Virus record (IMG/VR): IMGVR_UViG_3300043786_001515
Location: 1 to 21,810 of that record
Origin: a virus
Strand: one strand, 5' to 3'
DNA length: 21,810 nucleotides
Shown: in pieces, positions 5,066 to 19,700 of the stretch
Layout of the letters: each line of letters opens with the position of its first letter
Position numbering within the stretch: the first letter of the stretch is position 1
Program-made: the position numbers and the translations under genes
The notes under the pieces: generated by a model
The model's input: the letters and a program-made list of their open reading frames with translations, nothing else
Database searches by the model: none
What the model was told of the DNA's origin: nothing

Positions 5066-5280
5066 GCGACCGCGACCCCACGACACGCTCTGTCCTGGCC
5101 TGGGCCAAGGACAAGGGCGTCGATGAATTTTTCCTCGCTGGTGCCGCCGTCCTGGCGGGCTGGCCGCGAGGCAACGTCTACGACGAGCGAGCCCCTCTCC
5201 TCGTCACCGAAGCGGATTTTGACAAAGCCGTCGCGGCCTTCCGCGGCCTGGAGATGAAGTTATGCCCCTCCCCGGTGTGA
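5062..5280 (+). CDS. Small unknown protein before the tail sheath
   Basis: A 72-residue frame starts at ATG 5062, with AGGAGA just upstream and an ATGA overlap with the previous stop. The product reads DRDPTTRSVLAWAKDKGVD, then an AGAAVLAGWPRGNVYDE segment and a C-terminal helix (TEADFDKAVAAFRGLEM). It has no membrane segment. The sheath gene starts inside its last 19 bases, so translation of the two is probably linked. Small genes are common at this position in Mu-like phages, but I do not recognise the family and assign no function. Confidence 0.6.
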   Translation: MSDRDPTTRSVLAWAKDKGVDEFFLAGAAVLAGWPRGNVYDERAPLLVTEADFDKAVAAFRGLEMKLCPSPV

Positions 5281-6692
5281 ATGTTGTGCTCCAGGATTTC
5301 GCCCTGGGGCTGGTCGAGCCTGCGGACCACGCGCAGGCCATCGTCGGCACCGCGGCCAGCGGGACCAACAACGCCGTGGTCGCGATCAGCGACCTCAAGA
5401 CCCTCAAGGACACGTTCGGCTCGGGCCCGCTCGTCGAGGCCGCGGCGCATGCGCTGCTGGTCGCCGGCGGCCCCGTCTACTGCGTCAAGGTGGCCGCCAC
5501 CACGGCGGGCTCCAACAGCTCGGTGACCCTGACCGGCACCGGCGTGGACCCGGGCGCCACCGTCTCCGGCACCCCGCTCGACGACTACACCGTCCGGGTG
5601 AAGATCGTGCTCGGCGGCACTCGCGGCACCGCGACCTTCCAGATCTCCTTCGACGGCGGCGACACCTACTCGGAGGTGTACGTCACCGCCGCCAGCGTCA
5701 CGACCTGGGCCACGGAAACGGGCCTCACCATCGCGTTCGCCGTGGGCACCTACGTCGCCGGCGACATCTACGCCTTCACCTCGACCGGGCCCAAATTCGG
5801 CAGTTCCGACCTGGCGACCGCCCTCGATAACCTCAACGCTTCGGCCTACTCGTTCGAGTGGGTCCACATCGCCGGCACGGTCACCGGCGCCGACGATGCG
5901 GCCAAGGTCACGGCGTTCGCCGCCCTGGCTGCTGCCGTCGAGACCAAGCTGACCACCTGGACGACGGCGTTTCGGTACGCCTTCGCGATCCTGCAGGTGC
6001 CCACGGTCGCCGACTCGGCGCTCAACGTCTCCGGGGTCACCGGCTTCGCCAGCACCCGGCAGATGTGGGTTGCGGGCGATGTGGAGCTGGTCTCGGCCAT
6101 CAACGCCCGCCAGATCCGCCGCAACGCCTCCCTGAACGTCGCCGCCCGGCTCGGCGCCATCGATCTGCAGCGGTCCCCGGCCTGCCCCGCCGACGGCACC
6201 CTGCCGGGGATCGTGTCCCTGGTCCGGGACGAGCGGATCACCGAAGCCCTCGACGCGCTCCGCATCACGACGCTCCGGACCTTCGATAGCGCGTTCGCCG
6301 GTCACTACGTCACCAACGGCCGGATGATGGCGCCGGCGGGCAGCGACTACGCCTTCGTCCAGAACCGCAGGGTGATGGATCGGGCCGCCACCGTCGCCCG
6401 CCAGGCGATGATCCCCTACGTCAACGCCGATTTTCGCGTCGATGCGGTGACCGGCTTCATCGACGAGCGGGAGGCCGTGGCCATCGAGTCGCGCATCACC
6501 CGCGCCCTGGAGGGCGACCTCGTCGCCACCGGGCGCGCGACCCGGGTGCAGGTCCAGGTGAAGCGCGACGACAACCTGATCAGCACGCAGACCCTGAACG
6601 TCCGGATCCGCGTCATTCCCAAATCTTATGCCCGGTTCATCACCCTGGACCTCGGCTTCGAGAACCCCGCCCTCGCGGCGGCGGCGACCTGA
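5262..6692 (+). CDS. Contractile tail sheath protein
   Basis: The 476-residue protein has the features of a contractile sheath subunit, closest in my judgement to the DUF2586 sheath-like group. The N-terminus MPLPGVNVVLQDFALG is a typical sheath start. Residues about 84-178 form a beta-rich domain (FQISFDGGDTYSEVYV, TYVAGDIYAFTSTGP) that sits between parts of the core. The C-terminal core includes RRVMDRAATVARQAMIPYVN, a helix ending in LEGDL, VRIRVIPKSYARFITLDLGF and a final FENPAL. These C-terminal strands are the ones that interlock between sheath rings in known structures. GGAG about nine bases upstream supports the ATG at 5262. It is followed directly by the tail-tube gene, the standard order. 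Confidence 0.85.
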   Translation: MPLPGVNVVLQDFALGLVEPADHAQAIVGTAASGTNNAVVAISDLKTLKDTFGSGPLVEAAAHALLVAGGPVYCVKVAATTAGSNSSVTLTGTGVDPGATVSGTPLDDYTVRVKIVLGGTRGTATFQISFDGGDTYSEVYVTAASVTTWATETGLTIAFAVGTYVAGDIYAFTSTGPKFGSSDLATALDNLNASAYSFEWVHIAGTVTGADDAAKVTAFAALAAAVETKLTTWTTAFRYAFAILQVPTVADSALNVSGVTGFASTRQMWVAGDVELVSAINARQIRRNASLNVAARLGAIDLQRSPACPADGTLPGIVSLVRDERITEALDALRITTLRTFDSAFAGHYVTNGRMMAPAGSDYAFVQNRRVMDRAATVARQAMIPYVNADFRVDAVTGFIDEREAVAIESRITRALEGDLVATGRATRVQVQVKRDDNLISTQTLNVRIRVIPKSYARFITLDLGFENPALAAAAT

Positions 6693-11635: not shown

Positions 11636-12445
11636 ATGCCCCAGAACATCACCGACGTCGACGAATTCACAGCCACGGTCACCTCCCCCGCGGACGGCGA
11701 CACCCGCAACGCCGGCAGCGTCCTCGCCTCGTTCCAGATCGTCGCGAACCGCACGAAGTGGCTCTACAACACGCTCACCTCCCGAGGCATCTCGAAGATC
11801 CGGAAGGTCACCTCCACCACGGACCTGAAAGCCCTCGCCTCGCCGGTCGAGGGGGATGTGGCGATCCTGTCCACGGGCAGCGTGCCCCAGATCTTCGTCT
11901 ACCGGTCGGTGGCGCTGGCGGGCTCGGACCTCTCGCAGATCCGCTACGACAGCACCGTGTCTACCGGGCAGTGGCTCTCGCCCTGGTACTGGCTGGTCGA
12001 CGCCTCGGGGGCCTCGCCGCGGCTGGACGTGAACGTGCTGCCGCCGCCCAACCGGATCCAGAACGTCCAGAACGAATTCTCCATCAGCCCCTCGGCGACG
12101 AACGCCACGGAGGCCGGGTCGGTCTTCGGGCCCACCATGTCGCTCGCGGTGCTGGCTGGCGACAAGATCGTCTTCGACGCCCACACCACCCTGGCGATGC
12201 AGTCCGCCGATGCGTTCGGCTACATCGCCATCGCCGTCGATGGCACGGACCAGCCGCAGTCGAAGCGGCTGTGGACGGCAGACGGTACGGGCGCGAACCT
12301 GCACCTGCAGACGTCCTTGCTCTACGACGTGGTTTCGTCCGCCACCCTCACGATCCGCCTCTACCAGAAGATCACCACCCTGACCTCCGGGACGCCGCAG
12401 CTCATCGGGCCCCAGACGATCCGCGCGCTCGTGCTGAGGCCCTGA
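11636..12445 (+). CDS. Appendage or tail fibre-like protein
   Basis: The 269-residue product begins with NITDVDEFTATVTSPADGD and SFQIVANRTKWLYN, a start often found on phage fibre and spike proteins that attach to the virion. The rest is beta-rich (VEGDVAILSTGSVPQIFVYR, GQWLSPWYWLVDASG, DKIVFDAHTTLAM, FGYIAIAVDG, TLTIRLYQKI), in line with a trimeric or lectin-like head domain. The ribosome-binding site is weak. It lies between the hub/spike genes and the wedge genes. Host receptor contact is possible; no enzyme motif is seen. Confidence 0.6.
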   Translation: MPQNITDVDEFTATVTSPADGDTRNAGSVLASFQIVANRTKWLYNTLTSRGISKIRKVTSTTDLKALASPVEGDVAILSTGSVPQIFVYRSVALAGSDLSQIRYDSTVSTGQWLSPWYWLVDASGASPRLDVNVLPPPNRIQNVQNEFSISPSATNATEAGSVFGPTMSLAVLAGDKIVFDAHTTLAMQSADAFGYIAIAVDGTDQPQSKRLWTADGTGANLHLQTSLLYDVVSSATLTIRLYQKITTLTSGTPQLIGPQTIRALVLRP

Positions 12446-12447
12446 CC

Positions 12448-12894
12448 ATGGCGATGGAGGGCGGACAGGTCGTCGTCACCGACGACGAGACGGTGAGCGG
12501 CGGAGGCCTCGCGAGGGCCATCTACAACCGGAAGGCCACGAGCGGCGCAGCCACGCTCGCGGCCATCTCCACGGCCTACGCCTCCTCGCTGGAGACGGAG
12601 GGGCTCAGCCAGGGCGAGCGCGACGCCCTGGAGGCGCAGCGGGACAGCTCCCGGCTGTCGCTCCTGCGGTCCTGGGCGGCAGAGGCGAACGACCTCGGGG
12701 CCGCCATCGTCGACTACCTCAAGGCCAACGCCACGGTCTCCCTGGCCACGGTCAAGGCCACGGTGGGCACGTCGACCAGCGTGGGGCGCACGCCGAACCC
12801 GAACAACGGCGACGTCCCGATCGAGCCCCCGACGACCGCCGTGGACCTGCCGGTCACCGGGGCCGGGGGCGCCACGGTGCTCGCGCTGACGTGA
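12448..12894 (+). CDS. Small appendage-associated protein
   Basis: The 148-residue product starts at ATG 12448, with GAGG about nine bases upstream; an ATG two codons later is an alternative. It has an N-terminal GGGLARAIYNRKATSGAA, a helical middle (SLLRSWAAEANDLGAAIVDY) and a disordered end with TPNPNNGDVPIEPPTTAVDL. The pattern of GLARAIY followed by AAIVDYLKANATV recurs in phage proteins next to fibre genes. It may join or cap the preceding appendage. Its stop is six bases from the convergent end of the minus-strand gene. Confidence 0.55.
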   Translation: MAMEGGQVVVTDDETVSGGGLARAIYNRKATSGAATLAAISTAYASSLETEGLSQGERDALEAQRDSSRLSLLRSWAAEANDLGAAIVDYLKANATVSLATVKATVGTSTSVGRTPNPNNGDVPIEPPTTAVDLPVTGAGGATVLALT

Positions 12895-12900
12895 AGACCA

Positions 12901-13479
12901 CTATCGAGCGGACGGGGCCGAGCTCGGAGCCGGCGCCGAGGGGGATGCTCGAGGGTGCACCTTGAACGTGCATCCTGTAACCGTGTACCCCTCGGTACCA
13001 ACCAGCGAGCTGTTGTTTACTCGAACCTTGGACCAGCCAAGAAAGCTCGTATCGAGAACCGTGATTCCTGCGCCAACCACGGGGAACTTGGCTTTTGCCT
13101 CAAGTCGCTTCAGCTCGGCCTGGTTCTTGGCAGCGGCTACGCGCTGAAACCAACGAAAGTCCTCTTCGGTCGCAAAGACGGGCCCTCGCTCGTCGAGGGA
13201 GCAGTAGAGAAACCCGTCCTCTCCGGTGATGGGCCGGGGGATATATGCCTCCGGGGCAGAGGAAGGGGCAGACGCCTCGGCCTTGGCCCGCTTGTTTTCT
13301 CGCTCTTCCGCATTCTTGCGAGCCCCCTTCAGAGCGCCGCACATCATGCCCGTCACGACCAAGCAACCGAAGATCAGGGCGATGATGGCCAGAGGGCCGG
13401 GGCCCTTCTTCGGAGTTGGCTGCTGGTGTTGCGGATATCCCTGAGGGGACTGCGCCCCCGGTGGTTGCTGCCAGGTCAT
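12901..13479 (-). CDS. Moron: single-span membrane protein with possible SH3-like domain
   Basis: This is the only gene on the minus strand. The 192-residue product starts at ATG 13479, and a TTG at 13515 is a less likely start. Residues 1-29 are Gln/Pro-rich (PPGAQSPQGYPQHQQ). Residues 30-50 are one strong membrane span (LAIIALIFGCLVVTGMMCGAL). Residues 51-70 are highly charged, and 78-130 are a soluble region with a long helix (EEDFRWFQRVAAAKNQAEL). Residues 134-168 (VVGAGITVLDTSFLGWSKVR, then GTEGYTV) resemble a bacterial SH3-type barrel. The end is Ser/Ala/Pro-rich. Hand counts give 56% G+C for 12961-13140, against 73% in a 60-base sample of the next gene, so it looks acquired. A lysogenic-conversion or exclusion role is possible but unproven. 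Confidence 0.7.
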   Translation of the reverse strand: MTWQQPPGAQSPQGYPQHQQPTPKKGPGPLAIIALIFGCLVVTGMMCGALKGARKNAEERENKRAKAEASAPSSAPEAYIPRPITGEDGFLYCSLDERGPVFATEEDFRWFQRVAAAKNQAELKRLEAKAKFPVVGAGITVLDTSFLGWSKVRVNNSSLVGTEGYTVTGCTFKVHPRASPSAPAPSSAPSAR

Positions 13480-13577
13480 AGCTCCGAGGCTCGCTCCATG
13501 TCGCGCTGAGCACAACGCCCCGCGCCGCCCCTTCGCCCTCCCGCTCCCGTTCCCCTTCGAGCTGAGCCCTCAAAATC
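13480..13577. other. Divergent intergenic spacer between the moron and the wedge gene
   Basis: These 98 bases separate the moron start (minus strand) from the next + strand gene. This is the longest stretch without a gene in the window. On the minus strand GGAG lies directly before the moron ATG. A moron usually has its own promoter, which would have to lie here, but I cannot point to convincing -35 and -10 boxes. On the plus strand no clear ribosome-binding site precedes the ATG at 13578. A pyrimidine-rich run spans about 13525-13560. Confidence 0.4.
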
Positions 13578-13961
13578 ATGCCTTTCGGCACCGACATCTC
13601 CACCTTCCCGGACCTGGACCCGGCGTTCACGATCATCTCCGGGCCCCGGGTCGTGATCGAGGCGCTCGCGCGCCGGCTCACCACCCCGCGCGGCTCGCTG
13701 GTGAGCGATCCCGACTACGGCTTCGACCTGCGGCAGCTCCTGCACCTCGACACCACCCCCCAGGACGAGGGGCGCCTGCTGGCGCAGATGCAGGCCCAGA
13801 TCGAGGCAGACGAGCGGGTGCTGGGCGCCAGCGTGCGCTTCGTCCGCTCCGCCGGGGACACGCTCCGCGTCGTCGTGCGCTTCCGCACCCTCGACGGCCC
13901 CTTCGCTTTCACCCTCGCCGTGGCTGACGCCGGCGCCGCCATCCTCCCCGGGGAGACATGA
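13578..13961 (+). CDS. Baseplate wedge protein (gp25/gpW/gp46-like)
   Basis: The 127-residue product matches the small wedge protein that starts baseplate assembly. It has the typical EALARRLTTPRGSLVSDPDY block, a GFDLRQLLHL segment, an acidic helix and final strands ASVRFVRSAGDTLRVVVRF and GPFAFTLAVADAG. T4 gp25, P2 gpW and Mu gp46 share this layout. It precedes the J-like gene and overlaps it at ATGA. Its start has no obvious ribosome-binding sequence, perhaps because the region before it was altered by the moron insertion. Confidence 0.82.
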   Translation: MPFGTDISTFPDLDPAFTIISGPRVVIEALARRLTTPRGSLVSDPDYGFDLRQLLHLDTTPQDEGRLLAQMQAQIEADERVLGASVRFVRSAGDTLRVVVRFRTLDGPFAFTLAVADAGAAILPGET

Positions 13962-17149: not shown

Positions 17150-17932
17150 ATCGGCATCGGCATCGGCATCGGCCTATCAAGGCGCCGTCGCGGCGGCCCC
17201 GTCTGGACCCCGGAGACCCCCGGCGCTCCGGCGTGGTGGCACGAGGTCGCCCTCGGAAGGATCTGGCAAGACACGGCCGCCACCCTCGCGGCGACCACCG
17301 CCGGGCACCCGGTCGCCAGGATCGACGCCCGCTATGGCACGAATTTCACGCAGGGCGGCGTCTCCCTCCAGCCGTACCTGACCCCGCTCGGGTCCGTCCT
17401 GGCCGCGCGGTCGGACGACGTGGACGACAACTTGGGCAGCACCGCCACGTTCACGGCGGGCGCCAAAACGCTCGCGGTGCTGTTCGAGGTGTTCAGCGCG
17501 CCGGGAACGACGGCAGCCGAGACCCTCCTGCGGCTGGGGGCAACGCCCGCGCAGATCATCCTCCGGCACTCGGGCCTCAGCGCCTCCAGCGCCAGGGGGT
17601 GGCACGTCGGGATCGATCGCACCTCGTCCAACGCCGTCTGCATCCAGGGCACGTCGCCCGCGCTGCTGAGCAACGCCATCCACTCCATTGTGGTCCGGTA
17701 CGACGGCGTCAGCGCGACCGCGGCTTCGTCCTATCGCATCTGGCTGGACGGCGTCGAGGTCACCACCGCCACCGGCGGAAACATGGCCGCCACCGGTAAC
17801 ACCCGCTGGCTCGCCACCAGCGCCGCCTCCGAGGTCGCCAACGCGTCCGTGGCCGAGTCCATCGTGTGGACCAGCGCGCTCGCCGAGGCCGACTGCATCG
17901 CCGCCGCTGCTTACCTGGAAGCGAAGCGGTGA
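17147..17932 (+). CDS. LamG-like (concanavalin-fold) appendage protein
   Basis: The 261-residue product starts with MIGIGIGIGLSRRRRGG, coded by a hexamer repeat, then APAWWHEVALGRIWQDTAAT. The latter is a common phage appendage motif. The rest (TLAVLFEVFSAPGTTAAETL, IILRHSGLS, GWHVGIDRT, SIVVRYDGVSATAASSYRIW, LDGVEV) follows the strand pattern of LamG-type jelly rolls that bind carbohydrates. A 'VAESIVWTSALAEADCIAAA' end is typical of these modules. AGGAGG at 17136-17141 is an ideal ribosome-binding site. It likely forms a receptor- or capsid-surface-binding unit; the fold is inferred from sequence. Confidence 0.65.
   Translation: MIGIGIGIGLSRRRRGGPVWTPETPGAPAWWHEVALGRIWQDTAATLAATTAGHPVARIDARYGTNFTQGGVSLQPYLTPLGSVLAARSDDVDDNLGSTATFTAGAKTLAVLFEVFSAPGTTAAETLLRLGATPAQIILRHSGLSASSARGWHVGIDRTSSNAVCIQGTSPALLSNAIHSIVVRYDGVSATAASSYRIWLDGVEVTTATGGNMAATGNTRWLATSAASEVANASVAESIVWTSALAEADCIAAAAYLEAKR
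17150..17173 (+). repeat. Tandem hexamer repeat (ATCGGC) x4 at a gene start
   Basis: Four perfect copies of ATCGGC follow the ATG at 17147 and code for Ile-Gly four times. A change in copy number would keep the reading frame but alter the N-terminus in steps of two residues. It may be only a low-complexity anchor or slippage product. Confidence 0.85.
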
Positions 17933-18000
17933 CGCTCGCTACCCGCGTTCTTCTTGCCTTCCACGCCACGCTCACCCGCTACCTGCTCCGAGAGGTCATC

Positions 18001-18471
18001 ATGTCCTTTGTCCCCGCATCGTCCGTGATTTTCGCTGCCCCGCCCGCTGTCGCTGCCAGCCTCCAGGCGTACCTGATCGAGACGCTCGTGCGTCTCGGCG
18101 GCGCCATCGATTCCGTCGCCCTGACACAGCGCCTCGGCCCCGACGGCGGGGACTACGCGGATCCCTCGTTCTACGTCGGTGCGATGACCCTCAGCGAGGC
18201 CGAGATCCTGCTGATCCGGTCGGAGTTCCGCGCAGGCGGCACCCTGTACGACGCCGGGTGCCGGGCGCGCCGGCTCCTGTTCCCACCGAAGGAGATCGCC
18301 GCCCCTGGCACGGCTCCGGGGAAGCTCACCGTGGACGTGGTCGAAACCCTGCCGATCCCGGGCGGGGTCGACTGGGAGACGACCCGCGTGGCCAAGGACG
18401 CGTTCTTCGCGGAGCTGGGCCTGCCCGGCGATCCGCTGGTCGTGCTGTCCCCGCCCGAGGACAACCTCTGA
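18001..18471 (+). CDS. Hypothetical protein in the appendage cassette
   Basis: The 156-residue product is read from ATG 18001, with GAGAGG at a good distance upstream. A GTG at 17929, overlapping the previous stop, would add 24 residues and is the alternative start. The protein has an N-terminal beta-like SSVIFAAPPAVAASLQAYLI, a helical TLSEAEILLIRSEFRAGGTL and an end with LPIPGGVDWETTRVAKDAFF. No membrane span or known motif is visible. Its place among appendage genes suggests a virion part or a fibre chaperone. I do not recognise the family. Confidence 0.55.
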   Translation: MSFVPASSVIFAAPPAVAASLQAYLIETLVRLGGAIDSVALTQRLGPDGGDYADPSFYVGAMTLSEAEILLIRSEFRAGGTLYDAGCRARRLLFPPKEIAAPGTAPGKLTVDVVETLPIPGGVDWETTRVAKDAFFAELGLPGDPLVVLSPPEDNL

Positions 18472-18524
18472 GATCCGCCGGGGACAAGGCCGTCGAGCGG
18501 CACAAAGCGGAAAAGGCGCCCTGA
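18472..18524 (+). other. Possible remnant of a gene end
   Basis: Between two genes lies a short open stretch, in a different frame, reading RSAGDKAVERHKAEKAP before a TGA at 18522-18524. No ATG, GTG or TTG opens it within the spacer. The TGA sits in the same place within the 23-base junction repeat as the real stop of the glycine-rich gene does in copy 1. This may be the leftover C-terminus of a lost gene or chance. Confidence 0.25.
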
Positions 18525-18537: not shown

Positions 18538-18861
18538 TTCCAGCTAAAACAAGGCGACACCTTTGCCCTCGCCGGGTCCGCGAAACAGGACAGCGGTGCG
18601 GCCCTCGACCTCACCGGCGCCACCCTCCGGGCCCAGGTGCGCCCTCGCGACGGGGCGGGCTTCGGGGTGGTGGTCCAGGAGCTGACCTACGCCGTCGTCA
18701 GCGCGACCCTGGGGACCTTCACCCTCAGCGCCACGGCGGCGCAGACGGCGCTGTGGCCCACGGGGCGCCTCGCCTGCGACCTGGAGCTGACGGAGAGCGG
18801 GGGCGCCGTGGTCCACAGCGAGACCGTGGATGTCCACGTCAGAGCGGCGGTGACGCGGTGA
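18535..18861 (+). CDS. BppU-type N-terminal domain protein
   Basis: The 108-residue product reads [58 protein letters not shown] and [13 protein letters not shown]. This is the pattern of a small beta domain common in phage appendages and similar to the N-terminal domain of baseplate upper proteins (BppU, DUF2479). There it anchors fibres to the baseplate. Here it is a free protein directly before a collagen-like fibre gene that starts in a GTGA overlap, so the two may form anchor and shaft. Its ribosome-binding site lies in the junction repeat. Confidence 0.65.
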
Positions 18862-19700
18862 AGTTCATCCTCACGCAGCAACTCGGCGCCCTCGCCACGG
18901 CCGGCGTCAGCCTCACCATCTCCTCGCTGACCCTCCAGGGCCCCCAGGGGCCTTCGGGTCCGACGGGCGCGACCGGCCCCACCGGGCCTACCGGTCCTGG
19001 CGGCACGGGCCCCACCGGGCCCGCAGGGCCCACCGGCCCCACCGGCAGCGCAGGAGCGACGGGGGCCACCGGCCCCGCAGGTCCGACAGGACCAGCAGGC
19101 CCCACCGGGCCCACGGGCCCGCAGGGGGACCCGGGGCCCACGGGGAACACCGGGTCAACGGGCGCGGTCGGACCGACGGGGCCTGTGGGCCCGACCGGTC
19201 CGCAGGGGGATCCGGGGGCGACCGGGGCAGCGGGCCCCACGGGGCCCACCGGAGCCACCGGGGGCGCAGGCCCGACCGGCCCGGCAGGACCCACCGGACC
19301 CCAGGGCGATCCAGGCGCCACCGGCAGCACCGGCGCGACGGGGCCAGCGGGTCCTGCGGGCAGCACCGGACCAACGGGCCCCGCTGGACCCACAGGCCCC
19401 GCCGGTAGCTCGGGGTTCACGCGAGGGACAGGGACGCTGGCCTTCGGAGCGTGGCCCGGGAGCGACACGGCGTCGCTCGCGGTGACCGGACAGACGGGGA
19501 TCCTCAGCGGCGCCCAGGTGCGCGCCTGGCTGCGGATCGCGGCCACCGCGGACCACAGCGCCGACGAGCACATCATGGCTCCGCTGCGGGTGTCCGCGGG
19601 GGAGGTGGTCGCCGGCGTGGGCTTCACCGTCTTCGCGGTCTTCGACGCGCCGGTGCGCACCTACGGGGACTGGTCGATCAACTGGGAATGGAGCAATTAA
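18858..19700 (+). CDS. Collagen-like phage fibre protein
   Basis: The 280-residue product begins at GTG 18858, overlapping the previous stop (GTGA). Residues 1-27 are a short head ([20 protein letters not shown]). Residues 28-185 are about 52 Gly-X-Y triplets rich in GPT, GPA and GAT, with one break at GPGGTGPT and three GPQGDP units. Residues 186-280 are a globular end ([45 protein letters not shown]). Bacterial and phage collagen-like regions form triple helices without hydroxyproline, so this is probably a trimeric shaft with a receptor-binding or trimerising knob. Confidence 0.85.
18939..19412 (+). repeat. Collagen-type Gly-X-Y repeat region
   Basis: The DNA is a degenerate nine-base repeat coding Gly-Pro-Thr/Ala/Gln triplets. 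GPQGDPG appears three times, coded by similar but non-identical DNA, so internal duplication is likely. Length change by recombination within the repeat would alter fibre length in frame. Confidence 0.85.

What the first reader, a model, noticed from the sequence alone, without database searches (positions are those of the whole stretch)
12895..13577. Antisense, lower-GC moron splits the baseplate genes
The only minus-strand gene lies inside the late operon between appendage and wedge genes. G+C in 12961-13140 is 56%, against 73% in a neighbouring sample. The product has one membrane span and an SH3-like end. Expression in a lysogen from its own promoter, opposing late transcription, would fit a conversion or superinfection-exclusion gene of undescribed type.
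Basis: partly seen in the sequence, partly recalled or inferred. Interest (0 to 1): 0.62.

Follow-up and report, generated by a model that had tools for sequence, protein, structure and literature searches.

The report
Antisense envelope-protein cargo slot in phage
A virus of (probably) soil myxobacteria carries, back-to-front inside its tail-building genes, a small gene for a membrane-anchored protein; nine distinct related viruses including this one use the same spot, usually with unrelated proteins, which points to a swappable cargo slot that probably lets a resident virus alter its host's surface or keep rival viruses out.

Summary
There is one minus-strand gene in the window, at 12901-13479 (192 aa, ATG with a GGAG ribosome site), between a 150-aa plus-strand gene and the gp25 baseplate gene. 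Its frame is the best of six by codon bias, and its third-position GC is 0.71, against 0.85-0.95 in nearly all plus-strand genes. Bulk GC is weaker evidence: the tail-tube gene is equally low. The protein has one membrane span; the SH3-like end is only suggestive. The closest relative (86-91% nucleotide identity on both sides) lacks the gene and has an unrelated plus-strand lipoprotein gene there. Among 87 distinct related loci with gp25, nine distinct phages (window included) carry minus-strand genes in this gap, nearly all for lipoproteins or single-span membrane proteins, mostly unrelated, with relaxed codon bias. Two share one C-terminal domain on different anchors. The best outside match to the window protein's anchor is a PHROG 'superinfection exclusion Sie-like' protein in a Myxococcota integrative element. 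Best reading: a moron hotspot for envelope-displayed proteins, most likely superinfection exclusion or surface conversion expressed from the prophage. Expression and function are inferred. Morons are known; a recurrent antisense envelope-cargo slot beside gp25 in these phages appears undescribed.

The parts
12901..13479 (-). antisense gene, 192 aa single-span membrane protein (moron cargo)
   Evidence: ORF with GGAG ribosome site; best of six frames by codon score; GC3 0.71
13330..13395 (-). membrane span, residues about 29-50 of the product
   Evidence: hydrophobic run PLAIIALIFGCLVVTGMMCGAL; helix 29-68 in AF2, pLDDT up to 81
12952..13251 (-). C-terminal domain, residues 77-176, possibly SH3-like
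   Evidence: weak colinear match to L079 protein; AF2 inconclusive
13480..13577 (.). divergent intergenic stretch between the antisense start and gp25; expected site of a minus-strand promoter (inferred)
   Evidence: sequence; no sigma-70 match; homology to L002 resumes near 13489
12448..12894 (+). small plus-strand gene (148 aa from ATG), also missing in L002; codon usage is phage-like
11636..12445 (+). fibre-like gene whose first 43-49 residues match tail-fibre N-termini; left neighbour of the variable segment
   Evidence: match to the start of the Riverbug tail fibre gene
13578..13961 (+). gp25 baseplate wedge gene, right neighbour of the slot
   Evidence: PHROG 975/120/43, PF04965 below cut-off, 99% identical in L002
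13958..15070 (+). baseplate J gene used for the tree
   Evidence: PF04865 1.3e-30; tree
5262..6692 (+). tail sheath gene used to collect relatives
   Evidence: PF10758 6.3e-47

Best explanation
The gene is a moron: a laterally exchanged accessory gene in a preferred insertion slot between the spike/fibre genes and gp25 of Mu-like contractile-tailed phages, probably of Myxococcota. Shown by sequence: antisense orientation, presence/absence, gene replacement, codon usage unlike the operon, a membrane anchor, and recurrence of mostly unrelated anchored cargo in the same gap. Inferred: it is transcribed from its own minus-strand promoter in the prophage, when the late operon is silent; its C-terminal domain is displayed outside the cytoplasm at the inner membrane, where it changes the lysogen's envelope, most likely to block entry of related phages (superinfection exclusion); after induction, late plus-strand transcription runs through it and would shut it down. 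Sub-confidences: accessory envelope moron about 0.8; superinfection exclusion or surface conversion as its role about 0.55.
For: L002, 86-91% identical on both sides, has an unrelated lipoprotein gene instead. Nine distinct phages have minus-strand ORFs in this gap; 13 of 14 such ORFs have a lipobox or span, against 17 of 262 other minus ORFs in the same loci. GC3 0.69-0.84 against 0.91-0.97. The same domain sits on a lipid anchor in L194 and on a span in L015 (E 1.5e-5), so display at the envelope seems to be what is kept. The anchor resembles that of L155, which matches PHROG 8545 superinfection exclusion Sie-like at 3.6e-30 and lies next to an integrase gene. Known exclusion proteins are mostly held at the outer face of the cytoplasmic membrane by a span or lipid (PMC3952083); a gene antisense to prophage lytic genes with its own promoter is described as a typical accessory (moron) locus (PMC7067206).
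Against: No transcript, promoter or phenotype. The Sie-like annotation belongs to the OB-fold domain of L155, which the window protein lacks; only the anchor is shared, and Q/P-rich anchors are common in myxobacteria. Positive charges after the span leave the topology open. The window protein has no family match.
Confidence: 0.55

Rival explanations
1. Surface conversion unrelated to phage exclusion: the slot carries host-type surface proteins that help the lysogen (adhesion, predation, kin interaction) and not its defence against phages.
For: Several lipoproteins look like myxobacterial surface proteins: Cys-rich tails in L098 and L146, a DSDGVCDDLDTC-type repeat in L015, a G-X-X stretch in L036 (the resemblance to host proteins is from memory). 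The unrelatedness of the cargo fits varied functions.
Against: Related anchor in a mobile element carries a Sie-like domain; exclusion is the commonest role of small anchored prophage proteins in the literature read here.
Confidence: 0.25
2. Lysis proteins: the span proteins and lipoproteins are inner- and outer-membrane spanins, or SH3-bearing lysis helpers, expressed late.
For: Span protein plus lipoprotein pairs in L015, L038, L098, L146 and L227; stand-alone SH3 proteins occur in lysis modules (PMC13164509); no lysis gene was recognised in the window.
Against: Orientation opposes late transcription; no endolysin or holin beside them; the pair is incomplete in the window, L007, L036 and L194 and absent in most relatives; large Cys-rich or 302-aa lipoproteins are unlike outer-membrane spanins; codon usage differs from the lytic genes.
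Confidence: 0.08
3. The RNA matters more than the protein: the minus-strand transcript is an antisense RNA that blocks incoming phages or late genes, as STnc6030 does in prophage BTP1.
For: STnc6030 is antisense to tail genes and mediates superinfection exclusion (PMC7067206).
Against: The ORF lies in a gap and hardly overlaps any tail gene; protein features (anchors, shared domain in L194/L015) are kept across phages; no Rfam match.
Confidence: 0.05
4. Spurious ORF in decaying or foreign DNA without a product.
For: Codon score is only just positive (0.02); high-GC DNA yields many antisense ORFs; no close homolog.
Against: Intact 192 codons with a ribosome site, best of six frames; same kind of product in the same gap of other phages; anchor shared with L155 and L098.
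Confidence: 0.06

Closest known systems
Phage morons / regions of genomic plasticity (PMC4378225 for Mu-like phages; PMC7067206)
   Same: single gene inserted between conserved genes, composition unlike its neighbours, absent in close relatives, sometimes antisense to lytic genes
   Different: here one gap is re-used by mostly unrelated genes that nearly all encode envelope-anchored proteins and nearly all face the late operon; no promoter or terminator was recognised
Ltp-type superinfection-exclusion lipoproteins (phage TP-J34, PMC3952083)
   Same: anchor, low-complexity spacer and C-terminal domain; lipid-anchored versions occur in the same slot of relatives
   Different: ltp lies in the lysogeny module of a Gram-positive phage; no sequence similarity was found; the window protein has a span, not a lipobox
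PHROG 8545 'superinfection exclusion Sie-like' (as in L155, Myxococcota integrative element)
   Same: Q/P-rich start, KKG, Cys-containing span and linker
   Different: L155 ends in a tRNA_anti-like OB domain (PF12869, 2.8e-20); the window protein does not match PHROG 8545 or PF12869
HK97 gp15 moron and Cor of phi80/N15 (named in PMC11436027)
   Same: small envelope-associated exclusion proteins encoded as accessory genes of temperate phages
   Different: compared from the literature and memory only; different hosts, no homology tested
L079 antisense protein (IMGVR_UViG_3300025154_000068)
   Same: antisense in the tail module, span, PVFATEE motif and GW...KVR...G..G end
   Different: different tail slot; similarity only suggestive

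Membership tests
Moron | accessory gene absent from close relatives, flanks conserved | tested here: met
   L002 comparison
Moron | nucleotide composition or codon usage unlike neighbours | tested here: met
   GC3 0.71 against 0.85-0.95; codon score 0.02 against about 0.5
Moron | own promoter and terminator | tested here: inconclusive
   no consensus match; myxobacterial promoters not covered; only 6 nt between the convergent stops
Moron | expressed from the prophage | not testable with these tools
   needs RNA from a lysogen
Superinfection exclusion protein (function) | membrane or lipid anchor with an exposed domain | tested here: met
   span found; exposure of the C-terminus is inferred, topology ambiguous
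Superinfection exclusion protein (function) | blocks infection by other phages | not testable with these tools
   needs expression and plating tests
PHROG 8545 Sie-like family | sequence match to the family | tested here: not met
   no match up to E 10; only the anchor resembles a member, L155
Bacterial SH3 domain family | profile or fold match | tested here: inconclusive
   no Pfam or NCBIfam match; AF2 low confidence
Spanin | inner/outer membrane pair co-oriented with a lysis cassette | tested here: not met
   opposite to the late genes, no endolysin beside it, no lipoprotein partner in the window
Known anti-phage defence family (PADLOC) | profile match | tested here: not met
   no match up to E 1

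The most novel reading that the evidence does not exclude
The gap before gp25 in Myxococcota Mu-like phages is a dedicated conversion slot: a small divergently transcribed cassette in which anchors and exposed domains are shuffled separately (the same domain on a lipid or a membrane anchor), giving each phage lineage its own exclusion or surface specificity, with expression kept mutually exclusive with virion production by convergence with the late operon.
Probability: 0.35. Interest if true: 0.72.

Novelty: new variant of a known kind. Interest (0 to 1): 0.52.

Why it matters
Morons are usually noticed one at a time. A fixed position whose contents change, but whose product type (envelope-anchored) and usual orientation (antisense) do not, gives a way to find candidate exclusion or conversion genes by position alone in phages of a poorly studied phylum. 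It also supplies a set of mostly unrelated candidates to test side by side, and suggests a simple switch, opposing transcription, between lysogenic and late expression.

Tried and rejected
Close homologs of the protein: none in viral contigs, genome contigs or phage records; C-terminal query in 377 Myxococcota genomes gave only marginal hits. The two-row profile with L079 found no confirmed relative in viral contigs and weak hits in genomes, mostly to the anchor region; the one hit reaching into the C-terminal part (L184) showed no convincing homolog among the ORFs listed. AF2 of the full protein and of the C-terminal domain gave low confidence, so no fold search was run. Pfam, PHROGs, NCBIfam and PADLOC gave nothing useful for the window protein. 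Rfam: none. The plus ORF 12955-13509 was rejected on codon score. Low bulk GC was rejected as decisive because the tail-tube gene matches it. The spanin and antisense-RNA readings were considered and ranked low. Relatives could not be drawn for a virus record. One profile (A4, gp25) was too diverse to scan with.

Full report
What the window is. The window is a whole 21.8-kb virus record. It holds a Mu-like head module and a contractile-tail module on the plus strand: protease, major head protein, DUF2586 sheath, tape measure protein, gp25, baseplate J and Tail_P2_I. The nearest named phages are Myxococcus phage Mx4, Meiothermus MMP7/MMP17 and Thermus Riverbug, at 35-41% protein identity in sheath and J. 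Similar modules occur in Myxococcota genomes, in 20 of 108 genomes of one family; that family includes G001, the genome of L101, titled Polyangiaceae. A Myxococcota host is therefore likely but not shown.

The gene. The only convincing minus-strand gene is 12901-13479. A codon model trained on gp25, J and sheath genes of related high-GC loci scores its frame 0.02, the other five frames -0.18 to -0.59, the overlapping plus ORF -0.20, and structural genes about 0.5. GC3 is 0.71 against 0.85-0.95 for nearly all plus genes. The product has a Q/P-rich start, a span at about residues 29-50, a charged linker, and a C-terminal domain with two cysteines. AF2 is confident only for the helix.

Presence and absence. 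L002/L003 (IMGVR_UViG_3300032322_002143) aligns at 86-91% over 5.2-11.8 kb and 13.6-17.2 kb but not between. In between it has a fibre-like gene of 37% identity and a plus-strand lipoprotein gene of 162 aa. Homology resumes near 13489, just left of gp25. Mx4, MMP7 and Riverbug have no gene in this position. In most other relatives gp25 starts 0-15 nt after the preceding stop.

Recurrence. Besides the window, eight distinct phages carry minus-strand ORFs exactly in this gap. L007: lipoprotein, 129 aa. L036/L037: lipoprotein, 183 aa. L015: lipoprotein of 302 aa plus span protein of 198 aa. L038: lipoprotein plus a weaker span ORF. L146, in a Myxococcota genome: lipoprotein plus span protein. L098: lipoprotein plus span protein. 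L194: lipoprotein. L227/L210: lipoprotein plus span protein. Of 14 such ORFs, 13 have a lipobox start or a span, against 17 of 262 other minus ORFs of at least 100 aa in the same loci, none of which has a lipobox. Three of the 14 were picked by eye, which inflates this somewhat. GC3 of the slot ORFs is 0.69-0.84. On a J tree of 66 rows the state needs 6 changes and is not clustered; L036 (occupied) and L035 (empty) are sisters, and window and L002 differ in cargo. L038, L194 and L227 were not in that tree. The last survey covered 162 distinct loci, 87 with gp25. Not every long gap reported there was inspected by hand, so nine is a lower bound.

Relations among the cargo. Most cargo proteins show no similarity to each other. 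L194 (lipid anchor) and L015 (span) share a domain over about 140 residues (E 1.5e-5). L079 and L083 share a lipoprotein in another tail slot, 69% identical. The window protein's N-terminal part resembles that of L098 (0 of 2000 shuffles reach the score) and of L155 (E 8e-8 as a pair; such Q/P-rich anchors are low in complexity). L155 lies beside an integrase gene and matches PHROG 8545, superinfection exclusion Sie-like. L079, antisense in another tail slot, resembles the window protein along its length; its C-terminal match is suggestive only (p about 0.001 by shuffling, not top-ranked blind) and is the only support for the SH3-like end.

Mechanism. Shown: position, orientation, codon usage, anchor, replacement, recurrence. 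Inferred: expression in the lysogen from a minus-strand promoter in or near 13480-13577, display of the C-terminal domain outside the cytoplasm, and exclusion or surface conversion. The fit to exclusion rests on architecture: known exclusion proteins are mostly held at the outer face of the cytoplasmic membrane by a span or a lipid (PMC3952083), and an antisense position among lytic genes is described as characteristic of accessory loci (PMC7067206). The convergent arrangement, with 6 nt between stops, would let late transcription silence the gene after induction; this is inference. Rivals are other conversion functions, spanins, an antisense RNA like STnc6030, and a spurious ORF; none is excluded by experiment.

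Novelty. Morons, Sie proteins and antisense morons are known. No description of a recurrent antisense slot for envelope proteins beside gp25 in these phages was found in the searches made (open-access library only). It is rated a new variant of a known kind.

Noticed in passing
window 18861-19700: GC of about 80% and a collagen-like protein with Gly-Pro-Thr repeats (Pfam Collagen 6.4e-22), probably a virion appendage.
   Followed up: partly
window 17152-18514: A 1.4-kb plus-strand segment that the closest relative L003 lacks entirely (11574 joins 11550); a second variable site of this phage.
   Followed up: no
window 11636-12445: The first 43-49 residues match tail-fibre N-termini of other phages, but the gene lies before gp25 and not after the Tail_P2_I gene as in Riverbug.
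   Followed up: partly
L079:14403-15890 and L083:10132-10668: Antisense lipoprotein genes, 69% identical, just after the tape measure gene, and in L079 a second antisense span gene; the tail module has more than one antisense slot.
   Followed up: partly
L155:9711-12902: A PHROG 8545 Sie-like protein with an OB domain next to an HTH gene and a tyrosine integrase-like gene in a Myxococcota genome; related proteins in L108 and L109.
   Followed up: partly
L144:3396-3899 (also L114): Antisense HNH endonuclease gene in the tail module of a Myxococcota prophage.
   Followed up: no
L007:7126-8001: The gp25 reading frame is open for about 150 residues more at its N-terminus and starts 19 nt from the antisense lipoprotein start.
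   Followed up: no
L055:15830-16672: Antisense ORF of 280 aa with a possible span in the tail module, not identified.
   Followed up: no
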